Of a stretch of 64,000 nt of DNA, positions 4,134 to 62,655 are shown in pieces. The DNA comes from Owenia fusiformis. Taxonomy: Eukaryota; Annelida; Polychaeta; Sabellida; Oweniidae. How positions within the stretch are numbered: position 1 is the stretch's first letter; every line of letters begins with the position of its first letter. Location: contig CAIIXF020000006.1 in assembly GCA_903813345.2 (NCBI GenBank), positions 14,016,348 through 14,080,347 of the forward strand. Direction: 5' to 3'. The notes beneath the pieces are model-generated. The model saw only the letters and a program-made list of their open reading frames with translations. It did not search any database and was not told where the DNA came from. The translations under genes were made by a program, and so were the position numbers.

Positions 4134-6475
4134 GTGTTGGAAATGGCCTTGCCAGCTATCTTGGGTATGGACTTCCTGATTCAGTCTAGAGGGAAACTTA
4201 ATTTTGATAAACTTCAAATGGAAGTGGATGAAGGAATAGTCACGTGTTATACTGTGACAGAACCAACTTTAAGTTCTACCCTACAACTTAACGAAGATGT
4301 TTCCATACAGCCAGGGGAAGTTAAAGTGGTGAGAACTTCAAAGATCAGATCCAGATTTGTGTGTGGTGTATGAGCACGGAACTCTACCACCTAAAATTGA
4401 TCGACCAAGCCGGGATTTACAGAGCTATCTTATCAAAAAACCACTGATGATCACAATCATGCCCTGAAGGCTGTACTACAACGTTTGGATGAGAACAATC
4501 TCACAATAAACTCCCAAAAATGTGAGTTCAGCAAAAGTGAAATATCGTTCTTTGGACAACTATTCACCAAAGATGGCGTCAAACCTGACCCCGTAAAAGT
4601 GGCCTCTATCCTCAACATGGCCCAACCTACCGATGCTGGCGAAGTTAGATCATATCTTGGAATGATTAACTACTGCGCTCGATTCATGAAGGATCTAGTA
4701 ACCATAACCAAACCCCTTCGTGACCTCACCCTGAAGCATGTCAAATGGACATGGACCCCCACCCACCAACAGGCTTTTGATGAAACCAAAACCGCCCTCA
4801 AATCTGAAACCTGCATGGCTTACTTTGACCCCCAGTTGGATACCATAGTGCATGTTGATACATCCCTAGTTGGACTATCAGCCATATTATCTCAAAATGG
4901 TAAAATCATCCACTATGGAAGCAGATCCCTGACCCCCTTGAAGCCAGATACTCAGACTGAGCGTGAGGCCCTTGGTGCATGCTGGGGTATAAAATCTAAC
5001 CGTCTATATCTACTTGGAAAGCCGTTCACCATAACCACAGACCACAAGCCATTAGTCCCCATGTTCAGTAACCCCAGAGCTAACCCCCCTCCACGCATAC
5101 AAAGATGGATGCTGAGACTACAGGACTATACATTTACTGTTGTATACAAACCTGGAAACAACAACCCTGCTGATTACCTATCCAGACACCCCCTACCCAC
5201 ATCTGGTAATGAGCAATTATCACAAATCGCAGAGAGCTATCTGAACCTAGTCTCTGAGTATGATATACCCAAGGCCATGACCTTAGCTGAGGTCAAATCA
5301 GCCAGTACCACTGACCCTACCCTTAAGTGGCTGCGTCAGATAATCACATCCAACCAGTGGCATATCTCACAACAACCCCCTGATCAAGCTGTGAACTTAC
5401 GTCACATGGCAATATATACCAAGGTGAAAGATGAACTATCTGTTACACAGAACGACATCGTTATAAGAGGAAACCTGCTCGTCCTACCAGAGAATCTTCA
5501 ATCGAAGGCTATTGAGTTAGCACACGCAGGTCATTAAGGAGCTACAAAGACAAAATCGTTGTTGCGTACCAAAGTTTGGTTCCTGTACCTTAATGAACAG
5601 GTAGAACACAAAGTTAAAACCTGTATTGCCAGGCAACCACAACAAACCCTCCCCGTGACCACATAAAGATGAGTGAGCTACAACCCGCCCAATGGACAAA
5701 CCTATCCGTTGATTTCTCTGGACCCTACCCATCCAATGAGTATGTCCTTGTTGTAAAAGATTACTACTCAAGATATCTGGACATTGCTACCACAAGCACG
5801 TCATCAAGAGCAGTTATACCGAAAATGGACAGAATGTTCAGCTCTTTTGGAACACCCCGCAATCTGAAAAGCGACAATGGCCCACCCTTCGACAGTCATT
5901 AATTCGCCAAATTTATGACTCACAATGGAATCAACCACCACAGAGTTACACCACTCTGGCCTGAAAGTAATGGCAGCGTAGAATCAATCATAAAAAACAT
6001 CAACAAAGTAGCCCAGGCAGCAATCATAAAAAACATCAACAAAGTAGCCCAGGCAGCAATCATAGAAGGCCAAAACTGGAAACAGCAAATATTTAGATGG
6101 CTACGCAACCATAATGCAACACCCCATTCTACCACCGGCATATCCCTCTATGAAGCTATGTTCAATCGCAAAATGTACATTGGCATCCCTGACCTTGGAC
6201 CTACCCCAAACCCAGAGATTGACCACTCTCTCCGCACTGCAGATCAAAAACAAAAAGCTGCAATGAAAACAAATGCCGAGAATCACCGGCCAGTAAGACA
6301 ACATACCATCAAAGTTGGTTGACAAGGTACTTTGCAAGGACATCAAGAAAGGCAAACTGATGACACCGATCAACAGATCATTACAGTGCCTGGAATGGAT
6401 ATGGAAGGATGCTTTTTTGAAACCACTATTGATGATCCCAAAAGAAACGCTTTCCACGATGGTACAAGAAACCAA
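4134..6475 (+). pseudogene. Broken Ty3/gypsy-type retrotransposon pol (protease, RT/RNase H, integrase)
   Basis: Order on the plus strand: the C-terminal half of a retropepsin-like protease (ILGMDFL at about 4158), a frame change near 4400, then the reverse transcriptase thumb, connection and RNase H region open from 4485 to 5537 (SEISFFGQLFTKDG; YLGMINYCARFMKD; TTDHKPL; NNPADYLSRHP), typical of Ty3/gypsy pol. The RT palm with its YxDD motif and the protease DTG are missing. Integrase follows in two frames (5538-5902 and 5915-6322), with catalytic-core landmarks VDFSGPYP, KSDNGPPF and PESNGSVE, and one zinc-finger cysteine changed in CIARQP. Frameshifts at about 5537, 5902 and 6322 make it inactive. 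A 36-bp in-frame tandem duplication sits at 5991-6062. Confidence 0.9.
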
Positions 6476-7290
6476 TGAAGGTTATACAGGTGGCCATTTT
6501 GGGAATGTTCAAGACTCTTGGTACACTCAATAATAGAGTCTACTGGCCTAATATGAATGAAGATGTTACACGCCATGTTCGAGCCTGTGAGACGTGTGCA
6601 AAATACAATGGCACTCAGAAACACCCAAGAGGTGGTCTTCAACATGTGCCAGTGAGTCAACCAATGAAAAGAGTTGCCGTGGATGTCCTTGGGCCATTTC
6701 CAGTATCCAACCAGGGTAACAAAGTGATTGCCGTAGCCGGTGATTATTTCACGAATAAGCATTTCCTCTCACAAATCAGGAGGCAACCACAGGGGCCAGG
6801 GCAATGATGGAGAACTTCTTCTCACGCTTTGGAGCCCCTGTGGAGCTCCATTCCGACCAGGGGAGGAATTTCGAATCCAATGTTCTTGCTGAAATATGCC
6901 ATCTTATGGGAATCAAAAAGACGAGGACCACCCCTTTTAATCCAAAGTCAGATGGGCAAGTTGAGAGATTCAACAGAACTTTGGTGTCCATGATAGCCAA
7001 AATGATGGCGCCCGAGCAACATGGAAGGGATTGGGATGAGCATATTGTGGGAGCTTTGGTGGAGTACCGCAGTTCTGTTCACGAGTCCACTGGATTTACA
7101 CCTAATATGCTCATGATGGGGCATGAAGTGCAACTACCAATCGACTTGCTGATTGAAGGCCCAGAAGAAGATTATTTACCAACCACTGACTTCGTCATTA
7201 AATGAGAGACAACATAAACATTGCCTGGGAACGTACAAACCAATACTTAGGAAAGGCAGAACAGAACGGTACCTCCAAATTATAGGGGCG
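6476..7290 (+). pseudogene. Second Ty3/gypsy integrase fragment, different lineage
   Basis: A second integrase starts straight after the first. It has a zinc-binding region (RVYWPNMNEDV, then CETCAKYNG), a core domain (AVDVLGPFPV), then, after a small deletion and frameshift near 6755-6800, the frame 6804-7205 with RFGAPVELHSDQG, KSDGQVERFNRTL and a C-terminal region (TGFTPNMLMMGHE). The DDE residues are visible as VDVLG, HSDQG and the E of QVERF. The sequence is clearly different from the integrase just upstream, so this is a junction of two elements rather than a duplication. No LTR was identified with confidence. Confidence 0.88.
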
Positions 7291-19561: not shown

Positions 19562-19832
19562 TAGTGGTGTCAATTAACCGCTTGAGCATTAACCGGTTAA
19601 CCGGGGTTTTTTACCGGTTAAAGTCGGTTAACCGGCGGGAAATTTGAACTTATAATTTCAAATGAAATCTTCATCTTCGATCTTGAAAGTTGAAAAAATT
19701 GGAAAAATGATATATCGGCGTTTATTTTTTACGTTCGTCAAGCTTTACGCTATTCTATGTAAGTAAGCGCGGGAAAGCAATGTGGCAGGGATTAAAGTTG
19801 CTGATTGGATGTTTGTAAGGAATTATCGGACC

Positions 19833-20461
19833 TTATCCCGTTCCCGGACTATAGTCCTGCACTGATCGCATTCATTTGCCTGTACGATTACAACTTGGGA
19901 GAATTATCTACGCCCCTTACACTTAAGATACCTACCTCAATGCATTATAGAACTCAAGATGTAACTTCTAATATATTGGAACCGCCGATTGTCTGGGTAT
20001 ATCGGCAGAACGGGAACATTTTCTCTTTTTCATCGAGAGAGATTCCATCACTTTTCAAAATGGCGGTTGGATTTAAAAGGGGAATCCCCCGTTTGGCTGT
20101 CCCGGATGTAGCCCGGAAGTACCAATATGGAGGAATTTGACGGTTGAAATAAGTTAAATGTTACACGCAAATATTTACCCTTTGCATTCGTTTGACTTCA
20201 CTTCTTAAAAGAGAGCTTCGTAGTTTAACTAGACTCTGCACGCAGGGTAGCAAATATTACGATCAAAAACGAAAATGTCTTCGTTCTGCCGATAAACCCA
20301 GACAATTGTGGATTCAACTACACGAAAAGAATGCTAAATTACCAAGGAATCTATTGAAGTAGGTATCTGAAGTGTAAGATCAGTAAAAAATTCTCCCATG
20401 TTGTAATCGCACAGGCAAAAGATTGAGATGTTCACAGGACCATAGTCCGGGAACGGGATAA
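19833..20461. mobile_element. Fold-back element, family FB1, copy 1 (629 bp)
   Basis: Long inverted repeats start ttatcccgttcccggactat on the left and, read inward from the right, the same with catagtcc variants. The arms extend about 250 bp each. The exact 8-bp TSD atcggacc is at 19825-19832 and 20462-20469. The open frame 19805-20140 crosses its left arm and recurs on the other strand at 31206-31502, so it is arm sequence, not a gene. A third element is nested inside at 20176-20249. Confidence 0.92.
20176..20249. mobile_element. TACCCT MITE, short copy (74 bp), innermost insertion
   Basis: Ends taccctttgcattcg and tctgcacgcagggta. Exact 9-bp TSD gcaaatatt at 20167-20175 and 20250-20258. 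It consists of the first 46 and last 28 bp of the 378-bp element at 26816-27193, so it is an internal-deletion derivative. The sister fold-back copy at 30939-31483 lacks it and shows the empty site. A 9-bp TSD would suit Mutator-like or Merlin-like transposition; the family is not settled. Confidence 0.9.
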
Positions 20462-28300: not shown

Positions 28301-31300
28301 CAAGGAATGCAGCGAGTAAAAATATTGTAATCTCTATCCTTTGTTACACGTTTCATTTTCATTTTTTCATAGTTCGATATATTTTTCATATTCTGTTCTT
28401 ATATCAATCATGTTTTGCTTCAGTATCCTTTCTATAATGTTTTGCAGTCTCTGAATGTTTCTTCTTGTAGCATTCACCTCATTGTTTTTAGTTAAAGTTC
28501 AACTTTACATGGTGCAACACGTTCACCATTATTCCATTCTCAGCATGTATTATCAACTTCATAAACTCTTCCCCAATTTTCTCCACTGTAAATAGAGCCC
28601 CACTATTGGCCCTAGCATCATTTTTTGGATTCCCAAAGATAAGAGGGAAAAATCCCTTTCTATTTTTAATCAATTTATGATGGCATATTATGGGAGTGAA
28701 ACCATTTGGACCAAGTTGGAAGATTGAAATGTTTAGACAAATAGACAGGAAAGACAAACATATGCATGTTATACTATAAAGAATAAAGAATTAGCCTAAG
28801 CCTGAAATAAGTTCTCATTTTTAAGTTTCACCTTCAATGAGGCAAATTGGATCAACTATCATAGCACCTTTATGGTACAATAGTTACTCAAAACAATGAC
28901 TGACCTTTTCCTCTGGAGCTATTGTCTTCTCATCTCGCATTGATCTGGATTGTTGAAGAAAGGTTTGTGAAGCATCTTCGAAGCGACAAAGAAATTCCGT
29001 ACCCCCTAGTCTCCATGTACCATCTTGACTGACATAGATTGATGACAGAGCAATGTTGTTGTGGCACATGTGTCCCTGCAAGTACAAGAAACATTGATCA
29101 AACAACATAAAAATCATTTCATATTTCATCCAATTTTCATATCCTTGGGATATATTACAATGTTCTCCACAGTATTTTTTCTCAAGTAGGTACAAAATTC
29201 TCTTGATCACAATTCAGACCAAAATTGGTCAAAATATGCCTATTTTTCATGGTTTTTCTCATTTTTAAGTGGTTGCAAATGGATTTTGAAGTGGGTGCTG
29301 CACCCACTTGCTTTAATGCTGGGGAGATCACTGTATCAATTTTGAGATATAAGGAATGATTTATGAAATATTTTTTAGTCAGGTCAATAATATAATTAAA
29401 AAATTACATTTCAGATTGGTCTTTCCCTTAATAAATGTACTTGAACATAACTGATTTTTTATAGTAAGCTGCTCCCCTCAATCTCTTAAATTAATTGATT
29501 TGTTTGTGGTTACATATTAATTGATGATTATAATTGACTTTGTTATTGCACATAACATATATGACTTAGGTGTTACTACTATACTAGGCCTAGATACAGC
29601 ATAAAGCCAAACTGTGGTCAACATAAATTACTTAAAAAAAACCTCAACCCCATACAATGTATTTGATAAGTCCAAATGTTCTATTTACTTGTAATCTGTT
29701 AATTTTAAAGAATGGCCTTAGTGATGACCCTAATGATGATGATAATCCCTAAAATATGAGCACAAAGGCGGGTCAGTATTTCAATTGTCCTCCATATTCT
29801 GAATATTTAATCTTACTCTTCCGAAAAGGTCATGCATCAAATTTACTTTTCTAAAGAATTTATTTTAATATTGTAACTGATTTTGGCCATAGTTGTCAAA
29901 ATGTGAACTCCCTGGAATTTTTTAAATTGTGAACCATACTTTTGCAAAAGGGGGCATTATCCAAGGCAGCTCAACAATGTTTTCTGAATTATTCCTTCTG
30001 TTTCAAAAAATTCTGTTTTATTAAATGTTTAAACTTACACAATCATGCAAGAAGGCTATAGCTTCAATGATGCTGTACATGCCAGCACATATTTCCACAG
30101 ATGTCAGTGACTCTAGGACAGTTTCCAAAGGGTACACATCTTCTGTTACCAGACACCGGTCCTCCCCTGATTTGCATATTGCAAAGAACTTTAATATCAG
30201 TGGATGCCTTAATACTTTGAGATTCTGAAATGGAAGAAATACAATTAACTACATGCGTAAGACCTAGAGAAATGAAAATGCAAAAGCTGGAATATTGACC
30301 AATTTTCTGGAATGGGACATCATACCTCTGGAATTTATTCTAGATTACCTAATAATTGAAACAGAGTTTGCAACAGTATTGAAAACCAATAACAGTATTA
30401 ACCGCTACTCAAATAACCGTGCCATTACCAAAATACCGGTGAAAGTATTACTAAACTTGGGATTCTTTTCTTTACAGATTTGAACTTGAAAAGTACAATA
30501 AAAAGTATCTTTCCAATCTAGATGGGGAAGTACAAATAGATTTTAATTACAAAACCCCTCACTTCAAACTCCCAGTAATAAGTTTCATACATAGAAACAT
30601 CCCTGAAAATTTCAGAACGACAGATCATCTTTTTAAGTAAGAACGAAGAAATTTTCGTTTTTGATCCCAATATTTGAGTATAATATTTAACTTATTTCAA
30701 CCGTCAAATTCCTTCATTTATCGGTACTTCTGGGCCACTTCCTGGCCAGTCAAACGGGGAATCCCCTTTTAAATCCAAATGCCATCTTGAAAAGTGATGG
30801 AATCTCTCTGGATGAAAAAGAAAAATGTTCCCGTTCTGCCGATATACCCAGACAATTGTGGATTCAACTACACGAAAAGAATGCTAAAATACCAAGGAAT
30901 CTATTGAAGAAGGTATCTTAAGTGTAAGAGGTGTAGATTTATCCCGTTCCCGGACTATGGTCCTGTGAACATCTCAATCTTTTGCCTGTGCGATTACAAC
31001 ATGGGAGAATTTTTTACTCATCTTACACTTCTGATACCTACTTTAATAGATTCCTTGGTAATTTAGCATTCTTTTCGTGTAGTTGAATCCACAATTGTCT
31101 GGGTTTATCGGCAGAACGAAGACATTTTCGTTTTTGATCGCAATATTTGTGTGTAACATTTAACTTATTTCAACCGTCAAATTCCTCCATATTGGTACTT
31201 CCGGACTACATCCGGGACAGCCAAACGGGGGATTCCCCTTTTAAATCCAACCGCCATTTTGAAAAGTGATGGAATCTCTCTCGATGAAAAAGAGAAATGT

Positions 31301-31921
31301 TCCCGTTCTGCCGATATACCCAGACAATCGGCGGTTCCAATATATTAGAAGTTACATCTTGAGTTCTATAATGCATTGAGGTAGGTATCTTAAGTGTAAG
31401 GGGCGTAGATAATTCTCCCAAGTTGTAATCGTACAGGCAAATGAATGCGCTCAGTGCAGGACTATAGTCCGGGAACGGGATAAGTGTAGATAATTCTCCC
31501 ACGTTGTAATCATACAGGCAAAAGATTGGGCTCGGTCCAGGACAGTCCTGGCACGGGATAAATCTCTACGACCATGTATGATAAAATGATAAAACATGAA
31601 GAACAGCATACAACGGTCCCGGACAATGGTCGGATGTATATAACTTTACGAGAAACAGGCTCCTGGTGACGCCCATGTTCAAGTTGTCAACAGTGATTTC
31701 TTCTTGCCAAATTCCTGGCGAAAGAAAATCATGCGGTGAATATTATTTACCTTTGCTGCAGTTTCTAGAAGATCATCACCAACATCAGTACAGCTTCTGA
31801 ACACGGTTACACGTGTTCCATCCTTCTTCCTCGCTGGGTGAATTGTCCAATTTTTCTGGCTGGGCAAATTTATCGGTTCTTCCAGATCACAATCAGTGAG
31901 AGCACTCACCTCGGCTCCCAT
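22310..31921 (-). CDS. SCYL3: SCYL3-like protein (N-terminal kinase-like and start of HEAT region), C-terminus not found
   Basis: Seven minus-strand exons with matching phases: 31751-31921, 30039-30224, 28905-29075, 24698-24797, 24077-24182, 23734-23811 and 22310-22449. The start is the second ATG (MGAEVSAL), matching the MGxExSAL N-terminus known for SCYL3, a myristoylation-type sequence. The kinase-like fold is catalytically dead: the HRD site reads FLHDCGHMCHNN and the DFG site GGTEFLC. Other landmarks are NLKVLRHPLILKFF, YPLETVLESL, GHARDVFAFGVLVEALLEC and LNPDPTLRP. Exon 7 (LLLLPESLIATRLVRPLLSR) begins the HEAT-repeat region and ends in phase 1. About 317 residues are covered. Known SCYL proteins act in Golgi-ER trafficking and at cell edges. 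The remaining HEAT repeats were not seen below 22310. Confidence 0.9.
24544..24638 (+). repeat. 31-32-bp tandem repeat, three copies, in SCYL3 intron
   Basis: Units read ctcaaccccaagtcaactca followed by acccagtaaaa, with small variants. Confidence 0.85.
25145..25820 (-). pseudogene. Gag-like/nucleocapsid relic of a retroelement in a SCYL3 intron
   Basis: On the minus strand, from high to low coordinate: KPSDKSKKQSFSIHADGQLV; SITDWSIANTHILASQLNAG; after a stop, LAYTVKILQLAKT; then MLEMDAEYWDAQHSGGFTWG and SDLTHLEKVHLKSRLIPPKS. A frame change leads to LPLQTCMQLIHQNHPKAKHH, which resembles the end of a Cys/His zinc knuckle (C..C...HP...H) with some cysteines lost. This order (core, then zinc knuckle) matches gag-like proteins common in marine invertebrate retroelements; the exact class is inference. 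Internal stops show it is dead. Confidence 0.5.
26281..26353 (-). repeat. tRNA-like sequence, probably tRNA-derived SINE
   Basis: On the minus strand an A-box-like segment (tagtacactggtagaaagc) and a B-box-like segment (aggtttgaaaccc) are spaced as in a tRNA, with a possible anticodon arm between. Stems are imperfect, so a functional tRNA is unlikely. Confidence 0.5.
26816..27193. mobile_element. TACCCT MITE, long copy (378 bp)
   Basis: Ends taccctttgcattcg and tctgcatgcagggta. Exact 9-bp TSD ttgccaaag at 26807-26815 and 27194-27202. The first 46 bp and last 28 bp are nearly identical to the short copy at 20176-20249. It sits in the large SCYL3 intron. No transposase is encoded. Confidence 0.9.
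30640..31561. mobile_element. Outer FB1 fold-back copy, left end lost
   Basis: About 30640-30930 and 31492-31561 are the two parts of an FB1 element, split by a second FB1 copy. The right terminus is gcacgggataa at 31561. The left terminus that should read ttatcccg is absent, so this copy is truncated. It lies in SCYL3 intron 1. Confidence 0.75.
30939..31483. mobile_element. Inner FB1 fold-back copy (545 bp), inserted into another FB1 copy
   Basis: Starts ttatcccgttcccggacta and ends with its reverse complement. Exact 8-bp TSD gtgtagat at 30931-30938 and 31484-31491. The target is the FB1 internal sequence gtgtaagnggngtagataat, so this is a self-nested insertion. It is 84 bp shorter than the 19.8-kb copy, which is explained by the 74-bp MITE plus its 9-bp duplication there. 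The minus-strand frame 31206-31502 is arm sequence. Confidence 0.92.
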
Positions 31922-45782: not shown

Positions 45783-48700
45783 TCATTTTATATCTACATT
45801 GCTGTGTAAAGGATAATACACACAAGCGCCACCTATTTGTAAGAATTCCCCAGTTACTTTATCTTTAGCTACAAATGGATGTGTGGACGAAGTTTCAAAG
45901 TCCATCTTTTTGGAGGGGGCTATGTCCCAATATGTCTCAAACTTTCCTTGGAAGTCAATCCAGTGTAGTGTAATACTGGAATTTCTTCGGTTGTTGAAGT
46001 AAAGTCTGATTGGTCTCGTATGCCTATTGTTAACTGATTTAAAACCTGATGGTTTCTTGCAACCTTGAGTAGGTAGACCTGAAAAATCAATTTCAATTTT
46101 TAATACATGAAAGCATTTGATTTTATCTGTTTTATCATCATAACGCAATTAACTTTTCAGATAGGGAGGAATTGTATTTTGCACAATTATTCATGTTTTT
46201 GCAAAATCAATTTCAATTTTTAATACATGAAAGCATTTGATTTTATCTGTTTTATCATCATAACGCAATTAACTTTCATATAGGGAGGAATTGTATTTTG
46301 CACAATTATTCATGTTTTTGCAAAATCAATTTCAATTTTTAATACATGAAAGCATTTGATTTTATCTGTTTTATCATCATAACGCAATTAACTTTTCAGA
46401 TAGGGAGGAATTGTATTTTGCACAATTATTCATGTTTTTGCATTTGTCAAATTTGGGATATATCATTTTTATTACATTTGTTCAAAGTGCTATATACTGT
46501 AGTTGTCTTGTTGATTATTTTCTGTCATGTTAAAGTAAATTTATACAACTCACAACAAGCGTGTCGAATTTCCAAACTTTTCTCTGCATTGAGACAGGGG
46601 TTTCCAAACAACTTATCAGTAACAGGTAACAAACACCAGTTTGTGTTCTGACACTTTCTCTTAACAATCAACACAGTGTCTGTGCTCTGGCAGCGTATAG
46701 ATGTCACTGAGGTTGATCCGGGAATTGTTGTGCCGTAACTGGCGTGTAATACATCAATAGAAGACCCTGTAGGGCACTGCACTATCATTAACTCTCCCTC
46801 TGTTTTCGCAACCAATCCTGCATCTATAACATTAAGGAGAATCTACTTAAAGCTGGTCATAATCTTAAGAGCCATATACATGTTGGATACAATAATTTCA
46901 CGGATGCTGGTATAAAAACAGGCTAATGTGTCCCTTATGAAGAGAGTATAGTGGATTGTGATGTTTCACTGAATGGGTTATTTGATGAGTTATGTGAAGC
47001 TGTCACTGAACAATGTTTGCTAGTGATTAACTTTTTTAAACATGACTTTTAAGCTATGGATCAGATGAATAGTAAAACTTAAACAAATTATCTGTTCATG
47101 GACTTTTGCTTATTTCAGTTTCTTGTAAAAGAGTTTAACTCTCTTTACTTTTATGTAAAACATAAATATTTTTAAGAATGAATCAATCGCTGTCTGTTTT
47201 AGATATCTTAGACATATCCATAGTGCATCTGTTAAAAATATGAAAAAGTAAGAGGTTCACTTTTTCAACTTGAAAGAGTAATCAAGGTTTGATGCATGCA
47301 AAGTCAACATTATTGTTTATCAAAAACTGTGTTAAACCAAGTTAATTATTACCACAAATCAGGAACTCTCAATATATGGTAAAAAAGTTTAGTAGGTTGG
47401 ATTCTATATATACTTTGTAAATATTATCTCCAAGGTGAAATATATTGATAATACCATTTGTGAAATGTAATAACAACATAATGCATATAAATATATTTGT
47501 TTGATATAAAGATTTATTGGAGAAATATTTACACAAAAAATTAAACCACTACTGATCTGCCACCTATACAGCATCGTATTAAGCCACGCCCTCTCCATCT
47601 CTATCCTTCTGCGATGCAACAGAGAGAGATGCTATGAGTATCAGAATGCCTATACAGGTTTTAATCAGCATTAAATAACTACCTCAAAGAAGTTGTAAGG
47701 CTGCAGGATGACTCTTATTGTGGAGTAAATTCAGAAACACATTAACAGAAAGACCACAAACTAATATACAGTTTCTTGATTACCATTTAATGCGCTTACA
47801 TCACAGCCATACATTCTGTTTACAGTGTCACGATCCCCTTGCGACAGTCGATTAAGCACCCCTATAGCATTTGATAAGCCTCTTCTTTTTGTCTTAAATA
47901 CTTCAACTCCATGACTCTATAATCAGGCCATGTAGAAATTAGAAACATTTATTCAGTTATTAGTAACACAAGTAAAATCCTATTCTAATGCCTTATGCAA
48001 TTATTAAACTATTTTGTCTGACTTAATTAAGTCAATAAACACTTAAAACTTTTTTATAAAATCAAACTTTTTTTAGGTAACATAAATGTCTACAAACTTA
48101 GGATTCTTACACCTTTCGCATAGTGCATCACAGAAAATGGATCGTATGGCACCCCATACATGTTTGCTTTATCCCAGCGCATTTTGTGGAAATTAGGACG
48201 CCCTTTATTATCTATTTTGGCCCAATTTACTTGTATATGGTCTCCCCGATCTGGACGTATGTGCTCATGGTTCAATCCAATAGCATGGCCAAGCTCATGG
48301 AGGACGATTCTATGCTGGAACAATTAATGGTCAATCATATTTCTGTGATCCCTTTGCAAGAGATCAAGTTTATTTTAACTCTTAAGATCTTGGTCTACGG
48401 ATCATGAACACGAAGAAATTTCAGTGATTTAGCTGATATTAAATTAGCGTATGAGGACAGAAACAAGAAGAAAGGAGGAGGAAAAGTATCGCAACTGATT
48501 TTTTAATTTTTGTTGTATGAATATGTTGCGTTTTGACATACAGTTATCCCTTTAAAGGAATAAGTGATTCCTTCGGGCGTTTTAAAGATATCCATTATGG
48601 GTGACCAAAATTAGCTGAAAGCAATGGATCGCATGAGTTTTCCCTATGAGAAAATAACATGGGAAATTTTGTTTTCCACTTTATCTAAAAGGAATCACTT

Positions 48701-51700
48701 ATTCCTTTAAAGGGATTAATGTATGTCAAAATACAACATATTGATGCAAGAAAAATTAAAAAAGAAGGGGTTGAAAATCCGGAAAACATTTCAGAAAAAA
48801 CACGTGGGTGGGTTGTTTGCATCTTTCCTGTCTTAAAGTCAAAATTATTTTATCATCTTTAGGAGTGCTTTTCCTGTAGGTAATGCATTGGTCTAACATA
48901 TGCACCTGTTTAAATCCTCAGAAAATAGCCAAAATCCAACATATGACTGTCCGAAATTAGTTGCGATACTTTCCCTCCTCCTTTCAGTGATTTAGCCAAT
49001 ATTCAATTGAATATGAGGACAGAAACAAGAATTTTTACGATGGAAATTTTTTGGCCAATTTCGAAGTGAAGTGGTGTTTTTTCCATTTTTTTCATTATTT
49101 CATGAAAATAAAAACATATCTTCATATGCACTTACATGCCAAATGAACTTTTGTTTTTAACATTTGGACACAAATCTCTTAGAAATATATACATTAAAAT
49201 TTATTTGAGAAACATACCACAAAACAAGTGCTCTCATTTAGTGACAGTTGGGTGGTTGTCCTCATTCCAACATGACAGGCACAGCTGGAAGTGAACCACC
49301 AAAAATGTAATGAAGTGAGCCACCACAAGTGTAATGACGTGGACAAATTCTGAACCATTAACACAGCACATCATGTCAACATTACTTGCGAATGAGATTT
49401 TTGACATTTTTCATTAATCTACATATGCACAGAAAAATATATTGCTGTTTCATGTATCTTATGTACTCTAATAATCTAAGGTTTTACATGTACAAATAGA
49501 CCATGAGTCAAAATATGTTACTCTTGTACTAACCCATGCTTTCCATGGTATATTTCCAGTATATTCCTATCTGTTGAGACTGATGGACGGAACTTAATGC
49601 ATGTTCCTGAAATCATCTTGGACAGATTAACACACAGTGGAGATTAGCCCTGATATTCAATGATTTTACTCGAAAAGTTATCAAAAAGAATAAAGCACAC
49701 AAAATCAAAATAAGTTTAATCATTATTTTTATTATTTATAAAAGCAAAATATGTGCCTAATATTCATATTCTTCAGGCCTAATTAGCTCATTGAACTACA
49801 AGTTACTGTACAAGGTACAAGTTTGCAATATAGAAAATGTAATTCTCAAACTAAACATTTTGTACATGATTTCAGGCTTACCATGGTTCCATGGCCCAGT
49901 TACATTGCTACATGTATCAACAATACCCTTGAATATAAAGGCATTATGGTTTCCAAATTTATTGAGGGGGTGTAATAGTATATTGTACAGTACATCATAC
50001 CCTTAAAGGCATTAGGGTATTCAAACTTAGTTTAGGGGGTGTATATTGTATAGTACATCATACCCTTGAACACAGAGGCATTAGGGTTTCCAAACTTATT
50101 GAGGGGGTATATATTGTACAATAGGTCATACCTGATTCCCACTCCCTCATTGCAGCAAACACCTTGCATTTTAGGTTTTCTCCTGAAGCAAAATAAATGG
50201 CAATTCATAATCCTACAAAACTTGGCTGCGTCAACCAATCCTTCATTCTTTTACTTGGACCAAATCCTTAAGAGCACTTTGCATTATACATGTATAGAAT
50301 ATCTTAAGAAGTATAGAAACTATGGTTGTCCAGTTGAAGCCCAAACTATGTTTCAGTTCACAAGAACTTGTAGAACTACTACAGTCAAGGACAGTAAAAA
50401 ACAATCACACCTAAAAATGTGGAGTCAAAGGACCACAGTGCAATACTATATGGAATATACATCAATATTTTAAATCAAAAATGTTTGCATATTTTGGATT
50501 ACTTGTACTTTTCTTTTTGAAACCAGAACAACGGCAACGCCAAAGCGTAGCGAATCCCATCGAACAGAAATGGCTGGCATTTTTACAAACGAAATATATA
50601 GCAAATATCATAAAACAACACACCAGAAAGGCCATCATTTTCAAAATGGTTAGCCAAGTTGTCAACAGAAGAAATAATATGCTTTTAGTAGCCACCTATA
50701 AAATTTTTGAAAAATCGCACACATGTACTTCCATTTTTCAAAATTTTTTCAAAATGGCCGCCTTCTACCAAAAGTGTCATAGGACAGTGTGCCATGCTTA
50801 TAGTATTCACATACCAAATATGAACAAAAGTGCTTCCCTACTTTTCGAGTTATAGTAAAATACGTTAAAATGGCGGCCATTTTTCAAAATGGCCGCCTTC
50901 TACCAAAAGTGTCATAGGACAGTATGCCATGCTTATAGTATTCACATACCAAATATGAACAAAATCGCTCCACTACTTTTCGAGTTATAGTAAAATATGT
51001 TAAAATGGTGGCCATTTTTCAAATTTTTTTTCAAATTTTTTTTCAAAATGGCCGCCTTCTACCAAAAGTGTCATAGGACAGTGTGCCATGCTTATAGTAT
51101 TCACATACCAAATATGAACAAAATCGCTCCACTACTTTTCGAGTTATAGTAAAATACGTTAAAATGGCGGCCATTTTTCAAAATGGCCGCCTTCTACCAA
51201 AAGTGTCTTTAGACAGTGTGCAATGTTTATAGTATTCACATACCAAATATGAACAAAATCGCTCCACTACTTTTCGAGTTACAGCAAAAATCGCAAAATA
51301 ACGAGTAAAGGCCGCCATTTTTCAAGATGGCTGCCATGTGCTTTTTTAATATCTACATTTGTAGCTTTATTAATGTCCTTTATAATTTTTTTACACTTAA
51401 AACATATTGCTATTACAGTTTTACATATTGTACCTAAAATTACTGTAAAATCGGCACTAAAATGGCCGCCATTTTGAAATGAGCGGCCATTTTGAAAATC
51501 GGCTTTCGAGCAGAACTTCTACCCCCATAGGGTATATGTGTACAAAATATGAACAAAATCGGGCCAACGGTATTTGAGTTATTGCCCGGACGGACGGACA
51601 GACGGACGGACGGACGGACGGACGTACGGACGGACGTACGTACGGACGGACGGACGGACGGACGGAGGCGTTCCCTATATCCCTCCGAACTTCGTTCGAT

Positions 51701-52197
51701 GGGATAAAAATTGTCATGATTGACTTGAATCTCCCCAAATAGCAACAGACTACAGATTTACGGCACATAAAACTTATTAACTGAAAAATACAAAAGTTCT
51801 GTACCTAAGATATGGACATATTTTCCATCTACATGTATAAACAATGTATCCTTTGATTGCTTATTTTTTAGCTTAAATTGGCTTTTTTCATTGCCTCAAG
51901 CTGCATTTACTTTTTTTATTAGCAAAGCTGAAATGTTCCTTAACACCCATCCCTGCCCTGAAAAAAGTTTGATTTGGTCCCCAAAATCTTCTTGTTTGTC
52001 TCTTACTTACTAAACTTCTCATGAAAATAATAAGGAATTATTCCATTTGGCCATATTTTCACATCAATATGGGTTAACCCTCTTTTCCTCCTGCTGCCAT
52101 AGTGACCAATCCTTTGGTGATTGTTACCATAGTTGTCGCTATTACCAAGATTACCAAGTGAATCCCTAGTGTTACAAACTTCATGTTGCATAGAAAT
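45783..52197 (-). CDS. Secreted astacin metalloprotease with SUEL lectin domain and VHL-beta-like C-terminus; 5' exons missing
   Basis: Minus-strand exons: 52011-52197, 49218-49284 and 49526-49606 (the latter first in order), 48111-48314, 47800-47916, 46554-46823 and 45783-46078. The first holds a furin-type site (GSRRKRGLTHIDVKIWPNGI) marking the pro-domain/catalytic boundary. Then GTCIKFRPSVSTDRN, CACHVGMRTTT, the zinc site HELGHAIGLNHEHIRPDR (HExxHxxGxxH plus family E and R), the Met-turn SVMHYAKG and the domain end TVNRMYGC. Next is a galactose-binding SUEL-type lectin domain (CPTGSSIDVLHASYG; CQNTNWC; FGNPC; RHAC). The last exon resembles the VHL beta domain (SITLHWIDFQGKFETYWDIA; DKVTGEFLQIGG) and stops at 45783. 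Signal peptide, most of the pro-domain, and the exon between 49606 and 52011 (first catalytic helix) were not found. The phase between 47800 and 46823 does not match, suggesting one more small exon. Confidence 0.9.
46083..46441 (+). repeat. 119-120-bp tandem repeat, three copies
   Basis: Units start aaaatcaatttcaatttttaat at 46083, 46203 and 46322 and are almost identical. The array starts next to the splice acceptor of the last astacin exon and fills its intron. Confidence 0.95.
48471..48984. mobile_element. MITE-like inverted-repeat element (514 bp) in an astacin intron
   Basis: Ends are about 26-bp inverted repeats (aaaggaggaggaaaagtatc and its complement). A second inverted pair lies inside (tccctttaaaggaataagtg near 48549 against its complement near 48700). 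Outside, about 50 bp (cagtgatttagc...gaggacagaaacaagaa) is present on both sides in diverged form. The class is not assigned. Confidence 0.7.
49921..50131 (+). repeat. 60-75-bp tandem repeat, three diverged copies, astacin intron
   Basis: Units share catacccttgaa, aggcattagggtttccaaac and ttattgagggggtgtatatt. Confidence 0.85.
50720..51712 (+). repeat. 136-158-bp tandem block ending in a (ggac)n run
   Basis: Units begin aaaatggccgccttctacca at about 50750, 50886, 51045 and 51181, each containing accaaatatgaacaaaatcg and a gagttatagtaaaata motif. A related but different unit follows, then ggacggac repeats (51588-51665) and a short end (ccctccgaacttcgttcgat). A weaker relative without the ggac run is at 61075-61220. 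This is a dispersed composite repeat. The minus-strand frames reading RPSVRPSVR come from the ggac run. Confidence 0.88.
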
Positions 52198-54114
52198 CTA
52201 AAAACCAAGAAGAATTAAAATACTCATCCTCTTATACATCAATATCAAAAAGTATATTTCTACGAGTAATCTAATCCTATAGTTTTATTCCATTACTTTT
52301 TCTATTACATTACTTTACCAGAGTACTACATAACTGATTTCACTTTAACTTTAAAATAAAAGTATACTACACCCCCCCCCCACTACAGTAGTAGTAGAAA
52401 ACCAGAGAGTTTTCTGTGAGTAGCTGTTGAACATATATTAATTTGATATATATGAGACCTAAATTTTACAATATAATATTGTATAATGTCAAAAAGACAG
52501 TTATATATAAAATAAATCAGTACATACCTGGACAAACACAAACAATAAATGATAGCATATCTCAATGATATGCATAACTCTATTTTAAGATTCACAACAT
52601 TAACAAATAACCCACTTTTCATCAACTAACTTGTAAGTATATGTTACAATCACAAGAGGAGAATTCCCAGAATTCCCAAATAATATTGTGTAGTTTCAGT
52701 GATGAATTCTAATATTCCTATTTGGGTGAGCTAGTTCCAATTGTTTATTTATTTGTTAAAAATCAAGCATCAAATCATGTCTATGTCCCCTAGAGGCAGT
52801 ATTAAGTTGCCCTTCAAATACAACCATATACAAACTCCATTTATTTGACAGATCTTTAGTAAAAATACAACTTTACTACTCATTTAAGAAAGCTTATGTT
52901 GTGAGCTCATAAAAACATATTTCCCTTTTATTGCATTTAGTAGTGTACCCTTAGTTCTTTATGTGACTATGTTTTGTCCTTTATGTTTTTGTAATCTTTG
53001 TGGATCCTAAACTCCCTACTCAAGATATAATTTTACTTACATTGAGCAATCTTTAATTTCAAGCTTTGCAGTAGTTTACCTTCAGTATTCTTAAGATAAT
53101 GATAAGGTTACACTTTAACTTTTGCCATTCTGTGTGTTTGACAGTTATCAGCAAGCATTGACGGAGTAACTTCTGTTCGGGAATTCTGGGAAATTACCCA
53201 CATCGATATACATACCATTCAAAAACTTCTAAGAACAAAACAGGAATGTTTCAGTTATTTTTCTAAACAAATCAATTCAAACTGCAAAGACCTGACAGTA
53301 CTGTAATACATAATTTCAAACTCTTGTAGAACATAAGATAACACCAATCTTATATTAGATTATGCTGTGAACATGTCCATTCATTAAATTTTTCTTGAAT
53401 GGTTTTATATTTTTCTCTGGTTGGAATAACATAAACTTTCAAGAATCTTTATTGAATTTGCAGTGTTTAGTAGTTACTGTAAGTATCATACAATTTTATT
53501 TCTGTTGGTAGTTCTCAAATACAAGACAATCAATGTACATTTAAAATCAATAATAATTCTTGCATTGATTTATTGAAGGGAATCTATACAACAGTAACTT
53601 TCTGCTGATATCTGAACACATCCTCAATACAATCATATTTAAGTCACAATTATGTTCAGACAAAATTGCAGCAAGGGACAAAAAAGGTAAATTTATACAA
53701 GCAATCTTCAACAATGCATTTACATGTACATGACAAAAAGTGTATTTAAGGGTTGAAACTCAGTAATTTACTGTAAGTCCCCTAATTTGTTGCCATGGTA
53801 ACATTATTGGCTTAAATCTGAAGATGTCTGTATAACATGTTTATAACATGTGTCATAAGAAGTCATTGTATTTATATTATTTGGACAGTATGGGTATGTT
53901 AACATACTCAGTCTCCTTTCTGTGAAAATTTCAACTAGACTCCCTTATAAACGTAATTATGTTAGCCTTTGTACTAACATTTGTTGAACTTCCCTTGTAT
54001 GTATGGAATTCAAGTTAATCTCAAGTTATCACCATGAAACATGTTCTAACTACAAGTGTTTGCAAGAGATAATTTGGTTTGATTTACAGTCATGTAAGTA
54101 CAAACATGTCTCAG
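52198..54114. other. No recognised features
   Basis: AT-rich DNA upstream of the last visible astacin exon. Signal-peptide and pro-domain exons of that gene could be here, but no convincing exon was found. A poly-C run is at about 52373. A segment near 53796-53835 (ttgccatggtaac...aaatctgaagatgtc) is an inverted relative of 45624-45670. Confidence 0.45.
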
Positions 54115-59656: not shown

Positions 59657-60353
59657 TTAAAGTTCTGTGTGACCTGTAAAATCTTGTCTTTCAAACCCCC
59701 AGAAAGAAGAGGATTTTCCAGTCGAGTCTCTTTCCCTTTTAGCAAATGCAGAAAATGTTGATACACAATTTCCAATATAATGATCAGCTTTCCCTAATAT
59801 GGCTAAGTCTACGTGAGGGTCTGCTGGTAGATGCTGAACAATCTTGACCTGAAATCATAATTATAAGGTAATTAGTTAACCAAGAGAAATGACAACTCCC
59901 AAGGGAAGCAAATCACTCAACATAACATTTTGTATCATATCCACGGTGAGCATAACTACCCAATGTAAATCGTTTCAGACTTGTTTTCACAACAATTTGG
60001 ACTCATTTTGTAGGGGAATGAGATGAGACATTCATTTAAAAGGTGTACATTTTCTCGAATGTAACATAATCAATACAAATACAAATGAGAGTGCCTCGAA
60101 AATAATAACTGAAATATACCTTCATTGATTTCAAATGTTTAGAGATCTTATCCAACATTGGCTTATCATCTGTGGCTACAAATATGCTGCTAGCTTTGAT
60201 AGTTTTTGCCGCCTTTTTTATTTGAGCTAAAACAGTTTTTTCTGATGGAAAGCACATCTCTTTTGTTACTTCCTTTCCATATTCATTAAAGTATCCAAGA
60301 CATTGGGGTGAGGCAAATAACTTTTGCATTCCGACATGTTCACACGCCCGCTC
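59657..60353 (-). CDS. POFUT1: POFUT1-like GDP-fucose protein O-fucosyltransferase 1, last two exons
   Basis: Exons 60120-60353 (78 codons) and 59657-59848 (63 codons plus TAA), joined in phase 0. The first reads [40 protein letters not shown] and [20 protein letters not shown]. The second reads [40 protein letters not shown] and ends GHTEL. These match the C-terminal third of POFUT1 (FVATDS, ILGQADHFIGNCVSSFTAF), the enzyme that puts O-fucose on EGF repeats, for example in Notch, in the ER. The final HTEL resembles KDEL/RDEF-type ER retrieval signals. About 250 N-terminal residues should lie upstream (above 60353) but were not found; they may be beyond the window or in small exons I missed. 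Confidence 0.93.
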
Positions 60354-60483
60354 CTGGAAATAGATAAACAAGACACACATTTATACACTTTTAAGAGTAA
60401 CGCGATTGCCATGTAATTTACCCAGTACATGTACTGGTATGCCCAAAACCTAATCAGATGCTGGCACTACCTGGCTCTTGACG

Positions 60484-61354: not shown

Positions 61355-61473
61355 ACAAAGTCTGTTTTTTAATCTTACCAGAAAAGTATACTGTATGCAT
61401 AGTTTATGAATACATTATTAATATCACACAGACCTGTGTTGCAGAACAAGCACTTTATTGAAATTGATTAGAT

Positions 61474-62383
61474 ATGAACATGCAACAACTGAAGTGGCGC
61501 TTTTTTAGAATGTGGGAATCTCCTCTCTTAAAAAACTGGTGGAAAAAATATGTTTTATTTGTCATATTCTGTGTAACAATATTTCTATTGTTGCAAAATT
61601 GGTGTATTTTCAGTGTTTCCCATGAAAGCTACTTCATAGGGAAATATAGACAAAGTGGATATTCAAAAGAAACAGTGGACAAGTCTAAAAAGAAGCCGAG
61701 TGAATTAAATGGAAATATTAGGAATACAGACTGTAATCCTAGCATTGAGCCTTTAAACTTAAAAAAATCAGACATTTTGGAAGATAAAAAAGATGTACAA
61801 ATTTCTGAGTATATTAGTTCTGACATAATGTATGCATTTGAGCACCAGTATGTTCGGAAACATTCTGACATCCTGAAATGCACATTTGTTCAGGAATTGA
61901 AATGTTTACGGACTAAAATTGGAAAAGAACGACTAATTCTGTTGGGGGCATCAATGAGTTACTTGAAAGAGCTCTTTGAATGGTTGGTGGCTGGGATGTT
62001 GAAACTAAATCAACCTATCACAAATATACTAATATTCACCCCTGACAAAACTCTTAACAAATGGCTTGAAGAAAGGGGTATATACTCCCTTTATATTAAC
62101 TATACAGACATATTACTGTTAAATCAACAAAGCATAGGAGTGAAACAAAACTTTTGGATTTTACGATTAGTTCTTTGGCGAACATTAGACTATCTAGGTT
62201 TCAATAAAGTGCTGAATTTTGACACTGATGCAATACCATACCAAAATGTATTGGAATATTTAGATAGATTTCCTGATTCTGATATCATTGCCACAACGGG
62301 AACATTCCCAAAGAACATTCATTCAAAATGGGGCTTTACATTGTGCATGGGTGTATTGGAACTAAGAAATTCACCAAATATGA
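61474..62383 (+). CDS. Type II membrane glycosyltransferase, first coding exon (partial gene)
   Basis: 303 codons plus one base end at a strong donor (gtaagt); the gene continues beyond, and no further exon was found. Topology: a short basic cytosolic tail, one membrane segment at residues 26-46 (YVLFVIFCVTIFLLLQNWCI), a charged stem to about residue 110, then a catalytic region. Landmarks are ERLILLGASMSYL, LRLVLWRTLDYLGFNKVLNF and DTDAIPYQNVLEYLDRFPDS (a DXD metal and nucleotide-sugar site), followed by DIIATTG and WGFTLCMGVLELRNS. This order fits the nucleotide-diphospho-sugar transferase fold of the PF03407-like group. The sugar and acceptor cannot be told from the sequence. Starts at the first ATG of the frame; a second ATG is two codons on. 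Confidence 0.75.
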
Positions 62384-62655
62384 GTAAGTAATTTGTCCCC
62401 TCAGAAATTTGCATTTTTTGGAAATATTACAATTTAGCTTCTAAAAATTGAAATTTAGTTTCTTTGAAAAAAGCTTCTTTATTCATATTAAGAGATAACA
62501 AAACACAGAGATAAGTTGAAGATAATATTTTGAAAAAATTTCTATTTTCACATTAAATGGAACTAAAAAGGTGCAACTTTCTTACTTGAGGCAAAACATG
62601 TGACTATCATCCCAAAATGCAGCTCTTAAGATTTAAGCCACTTTTCGTCATCATA

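What the first reader, a model, noticed from the sequence alone, without database searches (positions are those of the whole stretch)
45783..52197. Astacin + SUEL lectin + VHL-beta-like domain in one secreted protein
Exons in one strand and order give a zinc-site astacin domain, a galactose-binding SUEL-type lectin domain and a final exon with the VHL beta pattern (WIDFQGKFETYWDIA...HPF...DKVTGEFL). VHL beta domains are best known in an intracellular ubiquitin ligase that binds hydroxyproline. Attached to a secreted protease it could act as a recognition module, for example for hydroxylated matrix proteins. The astacin part is certain and SUEL likely; VHL-like is my reading of spacing and motif.
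Basis: partly seen in the sequence, partly recalled or inferred. Interest (0 to 1): 0.8.

Follow-up and report, generated by a model that had tools for sequence, protein, structure and literature searches.

The report
Secreted protease with VHL-like tail
An animal genome, possibly a marine worm's, encodes what looks like a secreted protein-cutting enzyme that carries a sugar-binding domain and a relative of the domain by which the human tumour suppressor VHL recognises hydroxylated proline, which would be a new way to aim a protease at matrix proteins if that tail still binds the mark.

Summary
On the minus strand eight exons (52197-45783) with GT-AG borders and matching phases join into one open frame of 426 codons: astacin catalytic domain (159.5 bits), SUEL lectin (50.1) and a C-terminal VHL beta domain (23.2 joined, 27.3 alone; cutoff 21). 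The order is unlikely to be chance: three other loci of the same genome have astacin exons 0.8-1.6 kb upstream of a VHL-like exon, and one has sub-threshold SUEL exons upstream of one. Fourteen VHL-like domains group apart from four VHL rows taken as intracellular (99/96 support) and mostly share a cysteine pair those four lack. The hydroxyproline-pocket residues W88, S/T111, H115 and aromatic 117 are kept in 13 or 14 of 14; Tyr98 only in the window protein. Three bacterial VHL domains keep the pocket too, so it does not prove hydroxyproline binding. Best reading: a furin-activated secreted astacin aimed by two C-terminal recognition modules, perhaps at hydroxyproline-rich matrix. Splicing, secretion (5' end unresolved), fold and ligand are untested. 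A 2023 astacin review's list of partner domains has neither SUEL nor VHL; annotated animal proteomes could not be searched.

The parts
52528..52575 (-). candidate signal-peptide exon (MHIIEICYHLLFVFVQ), weak
   Evidence: the only one of 3 candidates, under the criteria of the script, that ends at a donor in phase 0; no signal-peptide predictor was run; inferred
52011..52197 (-). first mapped coding exon: end of propeptide, furin-like RRKR, start of astacin domain
   Evidence: RRKR lies 9 residues before the W, as the KR site does in L022 and L023
50132..50182 (-). astacin exon
49534..49606 (-). astacin exon (GTCIKF...)
49218..49284 (-). astacin exon (CACHVGMR...CFV)
48111..48314 (-). astacin exon with zinc site HELGHAIGLNHE and Met-turn SVMHY
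   Evidence: (79.8 bits alone)
47784..47916 (-). last astacin exon (to YGC)
46554..46823 (-). SUEL (galactose/rhamnose-binding type) lectin exon
   Evidence: (54.7 bits, cutoff 31.4)
45783..46078 (-). VHL beta domain exon, terminal, with stop codon
   Evidence: (27.3 bits, cutoff 21)

Best explanation
One gene encodes a secreted, furin-activated astacin metalloprotease whose two C-terminal modules, a SUEL lectin and a VHL beta domain of an extracellular-looking group, act as exosites that hold the protease on its target. Shown by sequence: the domains, their order, the intact zinc site, a furin-like site at the position it has in two paralogous loci, and membership of the VHL domain in a group with its own cysteine pair. 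Inferred: splicing, secretion, the disulfide, and that the tail binds a peptide or glycoprotein. The likeliest ligand of the VHL module is a prolyl-hydroxylated stretch of a matrix or mucin-like protein (about 0.3 on its own), because residues that hold Hyp in human VHL are kept.
For: Joined frame and phases; Pfam on the joined protein; zinc site, Met-turn and RRKR; astacin matches 0.8-1.6 kb upstream on the same strand of 3 of the 18 other VHL-like places, chance about 4e-8 if places are independent (two of the three lie 5.5 kb apart and may be one duplication, so this is rough); two SUEL-like exons upstream of the VHL-like exon of L027 (27.4 and 23.3 bits, under the cutoff of 31.4); a 99/96 branch between the 14 rows and the 4 VHL rows taken as intracellular; W88 14 of 14, S/T111 14 of 14, H115 13 of 14, F or W at 117 13 of 14.
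Against: No transcript data. The signal peptide is not secured: one weak candidate exon, while a more signal-like frame in exon 1 (52184-52074, by eye) is out of frame with the protease. No FxGD switch motif in the mapped part. Tyr98 is missing in 13 of 14 rows. The pocket is kept in 3 of 3 bacterial loci inspected. The VHL-like exons of the three astacin paralogs score 18.4, 18.5 and 20.1 bits, just under the cutoff of 21 (core exon only, without the preceding Cys exon). Structure prediction of the single sequence failed (pLDDT 36.8).
Confidence: 0.55

Rival explanations
1. The VHL-like module is extracellular but does not bind hydroxyproline; it is a structural or other protein-protein module that keeps the pocket residues because the fold, or a different ligand, needs them.
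For: Tyr98, which bonds the Hyp carbonyl in human VHL (PMC9528729, passages), is missing in 13 of 14 rows, and position 99 is Trp in 9 of 14; three of three bacterial VHL loci inspected keep the pocket, although bacteria are not known for hydroxyproline-rich proteins (recalled).
Against: W88, H115 and S/T111 rank 1st, 3rd and 7th of 70 scored columns, and S111 and H115 are the two side chains that hold the Hyp hydroxyl, so ligand contact is a natural reason for their conservation.
Confidence: 0.4
2. Two genes lie head to tail, an astacin gene and a separate SUEL-VHL gene; the joined frame is an accident.
For: No RNA evidence. SUEL-like exons with a VHL-like exon occur at L027 and no astacin match near it is in the listed part (that list is cut short).
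Against: Matching phases across eight exons and no stop in the joined frame; three other loci where astacin and VHL-like exons lie 0.8-1.6 kb apart.
Confidence: 0.07
3. The gene is decaying: a frameshift separates a signal peptide in another frame (52184-52074) from the protease, and the locus makes no secreted enzyme.
For: The other frame of exon 1 encodes a strongly hydrophobic, signal-like start (by eye) that stops at 52074.
Against: 426 codons stay open over eight exons with an intact active site; the furin-like site is in the protease frame with the spacing of two paralogs; an upstream exon in the right phase is a candidate.
Confidence: 0.12

Closest known systems
Astacin family (M12A), e.g. 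BMP1/tolloid, meprins, ShKT astacins (examples recalled)
   Same: Zinc site with the family glutamate, Met-turn with tyrosine, furin-like site before the catalytic domain, C-terminal non-catalytic modules
   Different: C-terminal SUEL and VHL beta modules; neither is in the list of astacin domains in the Figure 1 legend of PMC9848320 (section 5 part 1 read), which does have C-type and ricin-type lectins
pVHL, substrate receptor of the VHL-elongin-cullin ubiquitin ligase
   Same: VHL beta domain with W88, Y98, S/T111, H115 and an aromatic at 117 in the window copy
   Different: No alpha domain: the chain ends 8 residues after the ACVYYP strand; a cysteine pair not found in the four VHL rows taken as intracellular; joined to a protease in an apparently secreted protein
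SUEL (rhamnose/galactose-binding) lectins
   Same: Full-length Pfam match, 2-80 of 80
   Different: Single domain behind a protease; sugar-contact residues not tested
Bacterial VHL beta proteins: L050-L052 here, and one described in PMC9002001 (start of abstract seen)
   Same: VHL beta domain in apparently exported or membrane proteins (signal or membrane stretches by eye), L051 with a caspase and L052 with a CHAT domain
   Different: Other protease classes, no astacin, no cysteine pair seen by eye

Membership tests
Astacin (M12A) metalloproteases | HExxHxxGxxHE zinc site and S[IV]MHY Met-turn | tested here: met
   HELGHAIGLNHE at 132, SVMHY at 187; 159.5 bits, HMM 2-188/189
Astacin (M12A) metalloproteases | Signal peptide and propeptide with an aspartate (FxGD, recalled form) or cysteine switch | tested here: inconclusive
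   no FxGD in the mapped part; 5' exon unresolved
SUEL lectin domain (PF02140) | Full-length profile match above the curated cutoff | tested here: met
   54.7 bits alone, cutoff 31.4, positions 2-80/80
SUEL lectin domain (PF02140) | Sugar-contact motifs (YGR and DPC...KYL, recalled) | not tested
   by eye YG and PC are kept and flanking residues differ; no alignment was made
VHL beta domain (PF01847) | Profile match above the curated cutoff, and match to solved VHL by an independent profile | tested here: met
   27.3 bits, cutoff 21; profile of 12 domains of this genome finds human VHL at E 6.9e-6; profile-profile probability 98.4; the single sequence finds human VHL first but only at E 0.26
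VHL beta domain (PF01847) | Hydroxyproline pocket W88, Y98, S111, H115, W117 | tested here: met
   window: W, Y, T, H, F, conservative changes at 111 and 117; I109 is F, H110 is E; pocket residues from PMC9528729 and PMC6650433 (passages)
VHL beta domain (PF01847) | VHL beta fold in three dimensions | tested here: inconclusive
   AlphaFold2 on the single sequence gave pLDDT 36.8
pVHL ubiquitin-ligase receptor | C-terminal alpha domain binding elongin C | tested here: not met
   only 8 residues follow the ACVYYP strand before the stop

The most novel reading that the evidence does not exclude
The VHL beta domain has been recruited as a secreted reader of prolyl hydroxylation: this protease, and a group of at least 14 VHL-like domains in the same genome, recognise 4-hydroxyproline in collagens or mucin-like proteins outside the cell, so that matrix turnover is steered by the same mark that steers HIF.
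Probability: 0.25. Interest if true: 0.88.

Novelty: new variant of a known kind. Interest (0 to 1): 0.62.

Why it matters
VHL beta is best known for reading hydroxyproline on HIF inside the cell. It would give proteases a hydroxylation-dependent targeting module and offer natural Hyp-binding domains as reagents.

Tried and rejected
Structure prediction of the VHL exon as a single sequence gave a useless model (pLDDT 36.8), so no fold search was run. The second prediction job was not used.

Bacterial relatives: pattern scans of genome contigs found none or one match of 13 residues (L037), whose genome has no VHL match. Family searches then gave 1 of 296 genomes and 3 of 114 (G031 is in both). 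Phages (window exon) and plasmids (the L024 domain): no match at E up to 1. Viral contigs and metagenomes were not scanned.

Considered and rejected: that the last exon belongs to another gene (phase and recurrence argue against it), and that it is some other beta-sandwich family (no other Pfam match up to E 10).

The organism was not established. Twelve contigs of 31.9-62.2 Mb hold 477.5 of 498.3 Mb (lengths; of the other 513 contigs I looked at five, the largest 0.66 Mb). That fits the annelid Owenia fusiformis as described in PMC9977687 (505.8 Mb, 12 chromosome-scale scaffolds; passage), but no marker gene was compared and COX1 gave no match.

Literature left open: the sea-anemone matrisome paper PMC12549020 is listed with one occurrence of von Hippel-Lindau, but the main text held has none, so that mention was not seen.

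Rows dropped: alignment A1 has 14 VHL-like rows of this genome besides the three taken as intracellular and human VHL. Of the 19 places, C2:17303204, C11:24074702 and C1:9223325 (weak) were never fetched, L028 was left out as a near-copy of L027, and C9:2735585 as partial. L030b and L030c are in A1 but were left out of A4.

Full report
What is there. The window lies on contig C6 of a 498 Mb genome. On the minus strand between 52197 and 45783 eight exons with GT-AG borders join with matching phases into one open frame of 426 codons that ends at a stop in the last exon. Pfam on the joined protein gives Astacin 159.5 bits (HMM 2-188/189), SUEL_Lectin 50.1 bits (2-80/80) and VHL 23.2 bits (3-76/82; cutoff 21), in that order. 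The zinc site HELGHAIGLNHE with the family glutamate and the Met-turn SVMHY are intact, and a furin-like RRKR lies 9 residues before the conserved W, the spacing also seen for the KR site of L022 and L023.

Is the VHL call real. The last exon alone scores 27.3 bits (E 3.7e-6) and lists no other Pfam family at E up to 10. Against the whole genome its E-value is 0.0019, over the curated cutoff but missed by the first scan at E 0.001. A single-sequence search of the PDB gives human VHL first, but only at E 0.26. A profile from 12 VHL-like domains of this genome, without human VHL and without the rows taken as intracellular, finds human VHL at E 6.9e-6 and nothing else below E 1. Profile against profile, this set and the set of three rows taken as intracellular plus human VHL match at 98.4% probability. 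Structure prediction failed for want of an alignment.

Is it one gene. There are no transcripts. But the exon-8 protein finds 19 places in the genome, the window included. Astacin matches (152 reported, list cut short) lie 0.8-1.6 kb upstream on the same strand of three of the other 18 (C7:25447005, C7:26565775, C7:26571289). With about 150 astacin matches the chance of three or more is about 4e-8 if the places are independent; two of the three lie 5.5 kb apart and may be one duplication, so the figure is rough. At those loci the linker is Thr/Pro- or Gly-rich, no SUEL match is listed, and the VHL-like core exons score 18.4, 18.5 and 20.1 bits, just under the cutoff. At L027 on contig C4 two SUEL-like exons (27.4 and 23.3 bits, under the cutoff of 31.4) lie upstream of a VHL-like exon (22.7 bits); its near-copy L028 was not scanned for SUEL. 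So astacin with VHL recurs, and SUEL with VHL probably does, which makes an accidental neighbourhood unlikely.

A group of extracellular-looking VHL-like domains. VHL-like domains also occur in tandem on contig C9 (L030, L031), beside C-type-lectin-like exons (L032; weak matches), after a hydrophobic membrane-like stretch (L025; by eye) and some 4 kb behind an apparent signal peptide (L036; by eye); in none of these is one gene proved. Of the 14 rows called extracellular here, eight (window, L021, L022, L023, L025, L027, L032, L036) have such a neighbour; six (L024, L026, L030a, L030b, L030c, L031a) are grouped by sequence alone. The four other rows (L033, L034, L035 and human VHL) are taken as intracellular by their likeness to VHL, without localisation data. 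In a tree of the 18 rows one branch with 99/96 support separates the two sets; it is the only firm one of 15 inner branches. The cysteine of the last strand is in 13 of 14 extracellular rows and in 0 of the 4 others (alignment). The N-terminal cysteine is in 9 of the 10 rows whose N-terminal end is known (for L030b), and candidate exons with it lie upstream at L026 and L027. The one row without it, L030b, also lacks the other cysteine, which suggests a disulfide; this is inference.

The pocket. In human VHL, Hyp sits among W88, Y98, H110, S111, H115 and W117, with S111 and H115 bonding its hydroxyl and Y98 its carbonyl (PMC9528729, passages); W88, Y98, I109, S111, H115 and W117 are called almost invariably conserved in animals (PMC6650433, passages). 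The window has W, Y, T, H and F at 88, 98, 111, 115 and 117, and F and E at 109 and 110. Over the 14 rows: W88 14, S/T111 14, H115 13, F or W at 117 13, Y98 1. The five positions score above random sets of five columns (p 0.0016; without position 98, p 0.0003); the test ignores kinship between rows and does not separate ligand contact from fold. Against a special meaning: three of three bacterial loci inspected keep W, Y, S/T, H and W, so the pocket is a mark of the wider family.

How it most likely works. The protein would be secreted, cut by a furin-like protease at RRKR, and held on its substrate by the lectin and the VHL-like tail. Shown: domains, order, active site, family membership. Inferred: splicing, secretion, disulfide, ligand. 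pVHL itself is reported to bind hydroxylated collagen IV alpha 2 (title of Kurban 2008, seen only in the reference list of PMC7574549), which makes a matrix ligand conceivable.

Weak points. The 5' end is open: the only candidate exon in the right phase, under the criteria used, is MHIIEICYHLLFVFVQ at 52575-52528. A more signal-like frame in exon 1 (52184-52074, by eye) is in another frame and stops. No FxGD motif was found in the mapped part.

What is known. A 2023 review lists astacin domains in its Figure 1 legend; C-type and ricin-type lectins are there, SUEL and VHL are not (PMC9848320, section 5 part 1 and passages). Seven searches of the open-access library (VHL beta domain with extracellular; astacin with VHL and lectin domain; von Hippel-Lindau with astacin; VHL domain with secreted and mollusc; PF01847; a broader mix; SUEL, VHL and astacin two at a time) listed no paper recognisable from title or abstract start as describing such proteins; of the listed papers I opened passages of three (PMC12549020, PMC9848320, PMC10828956). 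One mention of von Hippel-Lindau in PMC12549020 was not seen. A bacterial VHL-domain protein is described in PMC9002001 (start of abstract seen). Annotated animal proteins could not be searched, so the architecture may sit unremarked in databases. In the bacteria searched here VHL beta is rare (1 of 296 and 3 of 114 genomes, G031 in both) and occurs with a caspase domain (L051) and a CHAT domain (L052), so VHL beta has met peptidase-type domains more than once.

Verdict. The functional idea is open, with a sharp and simple test.

Noticed in passing
46083-46442: Three nearly identical copies of a 120-bp unit fill the intron up to the acceptor of the VHL exon (98% matches).
   Followed up: no
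52184-52074 (minus strand): Exon 1 holds a second frame that begins like a signal peptide (MKFVTLGIHLVILVIATTMVTITKG, by eye) and stops at 52074, out of frame with the protease.
   Followed up: partly
L030, L031 (contig C9, 2.726-2.744 Mb): At least four VHL-like domains lie in tandem on one strand, possibly one multi-domain protein.
   Followed up: partly
L032: C-type-lectin-like exons (19.2 and 21.7 bits, cutoff 22.6) and a VHL-like exon on the same strand, with a reverse-transcriptase-like frame (by eye) between them.
   Followed up: no
L036: An apparent signal peptide (by eye) and, about 4 kb on, a VHL-like end split over two exons that scores only 15.6 bits in its first exon.
   Followed up: no
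L050-L052: Bacterial VHL beta domains in apparently exported or membrane proteins, with laminin-G-like, caspase C14 and CHAT domains; all three keep the Hyp-pocket pattern.
   Followed up: partly
4401-5534 and 6759-7202: Reverse transcriptase/RNase H and integrase matches on the plus strand, remains of a retrotransposon.
   Followed up: no
60039-60380: O-fucosyltransferase exon on the minus strand (39.1 bits); the stretch between it and this gene was not scanned with Pfam.
   Followed up: no
61468-62388: Long frame with a membrane-like start (by eye) and a sub-threshold match to a nucleotide-sugar transferase (21.1 bits, cutoff 22).
   Followed up: no
19805-20137 (+) and 31209-31565 (-): Two similar frames of unknown kind in opposite orientation about 11 kb apart.
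   Followed up: no
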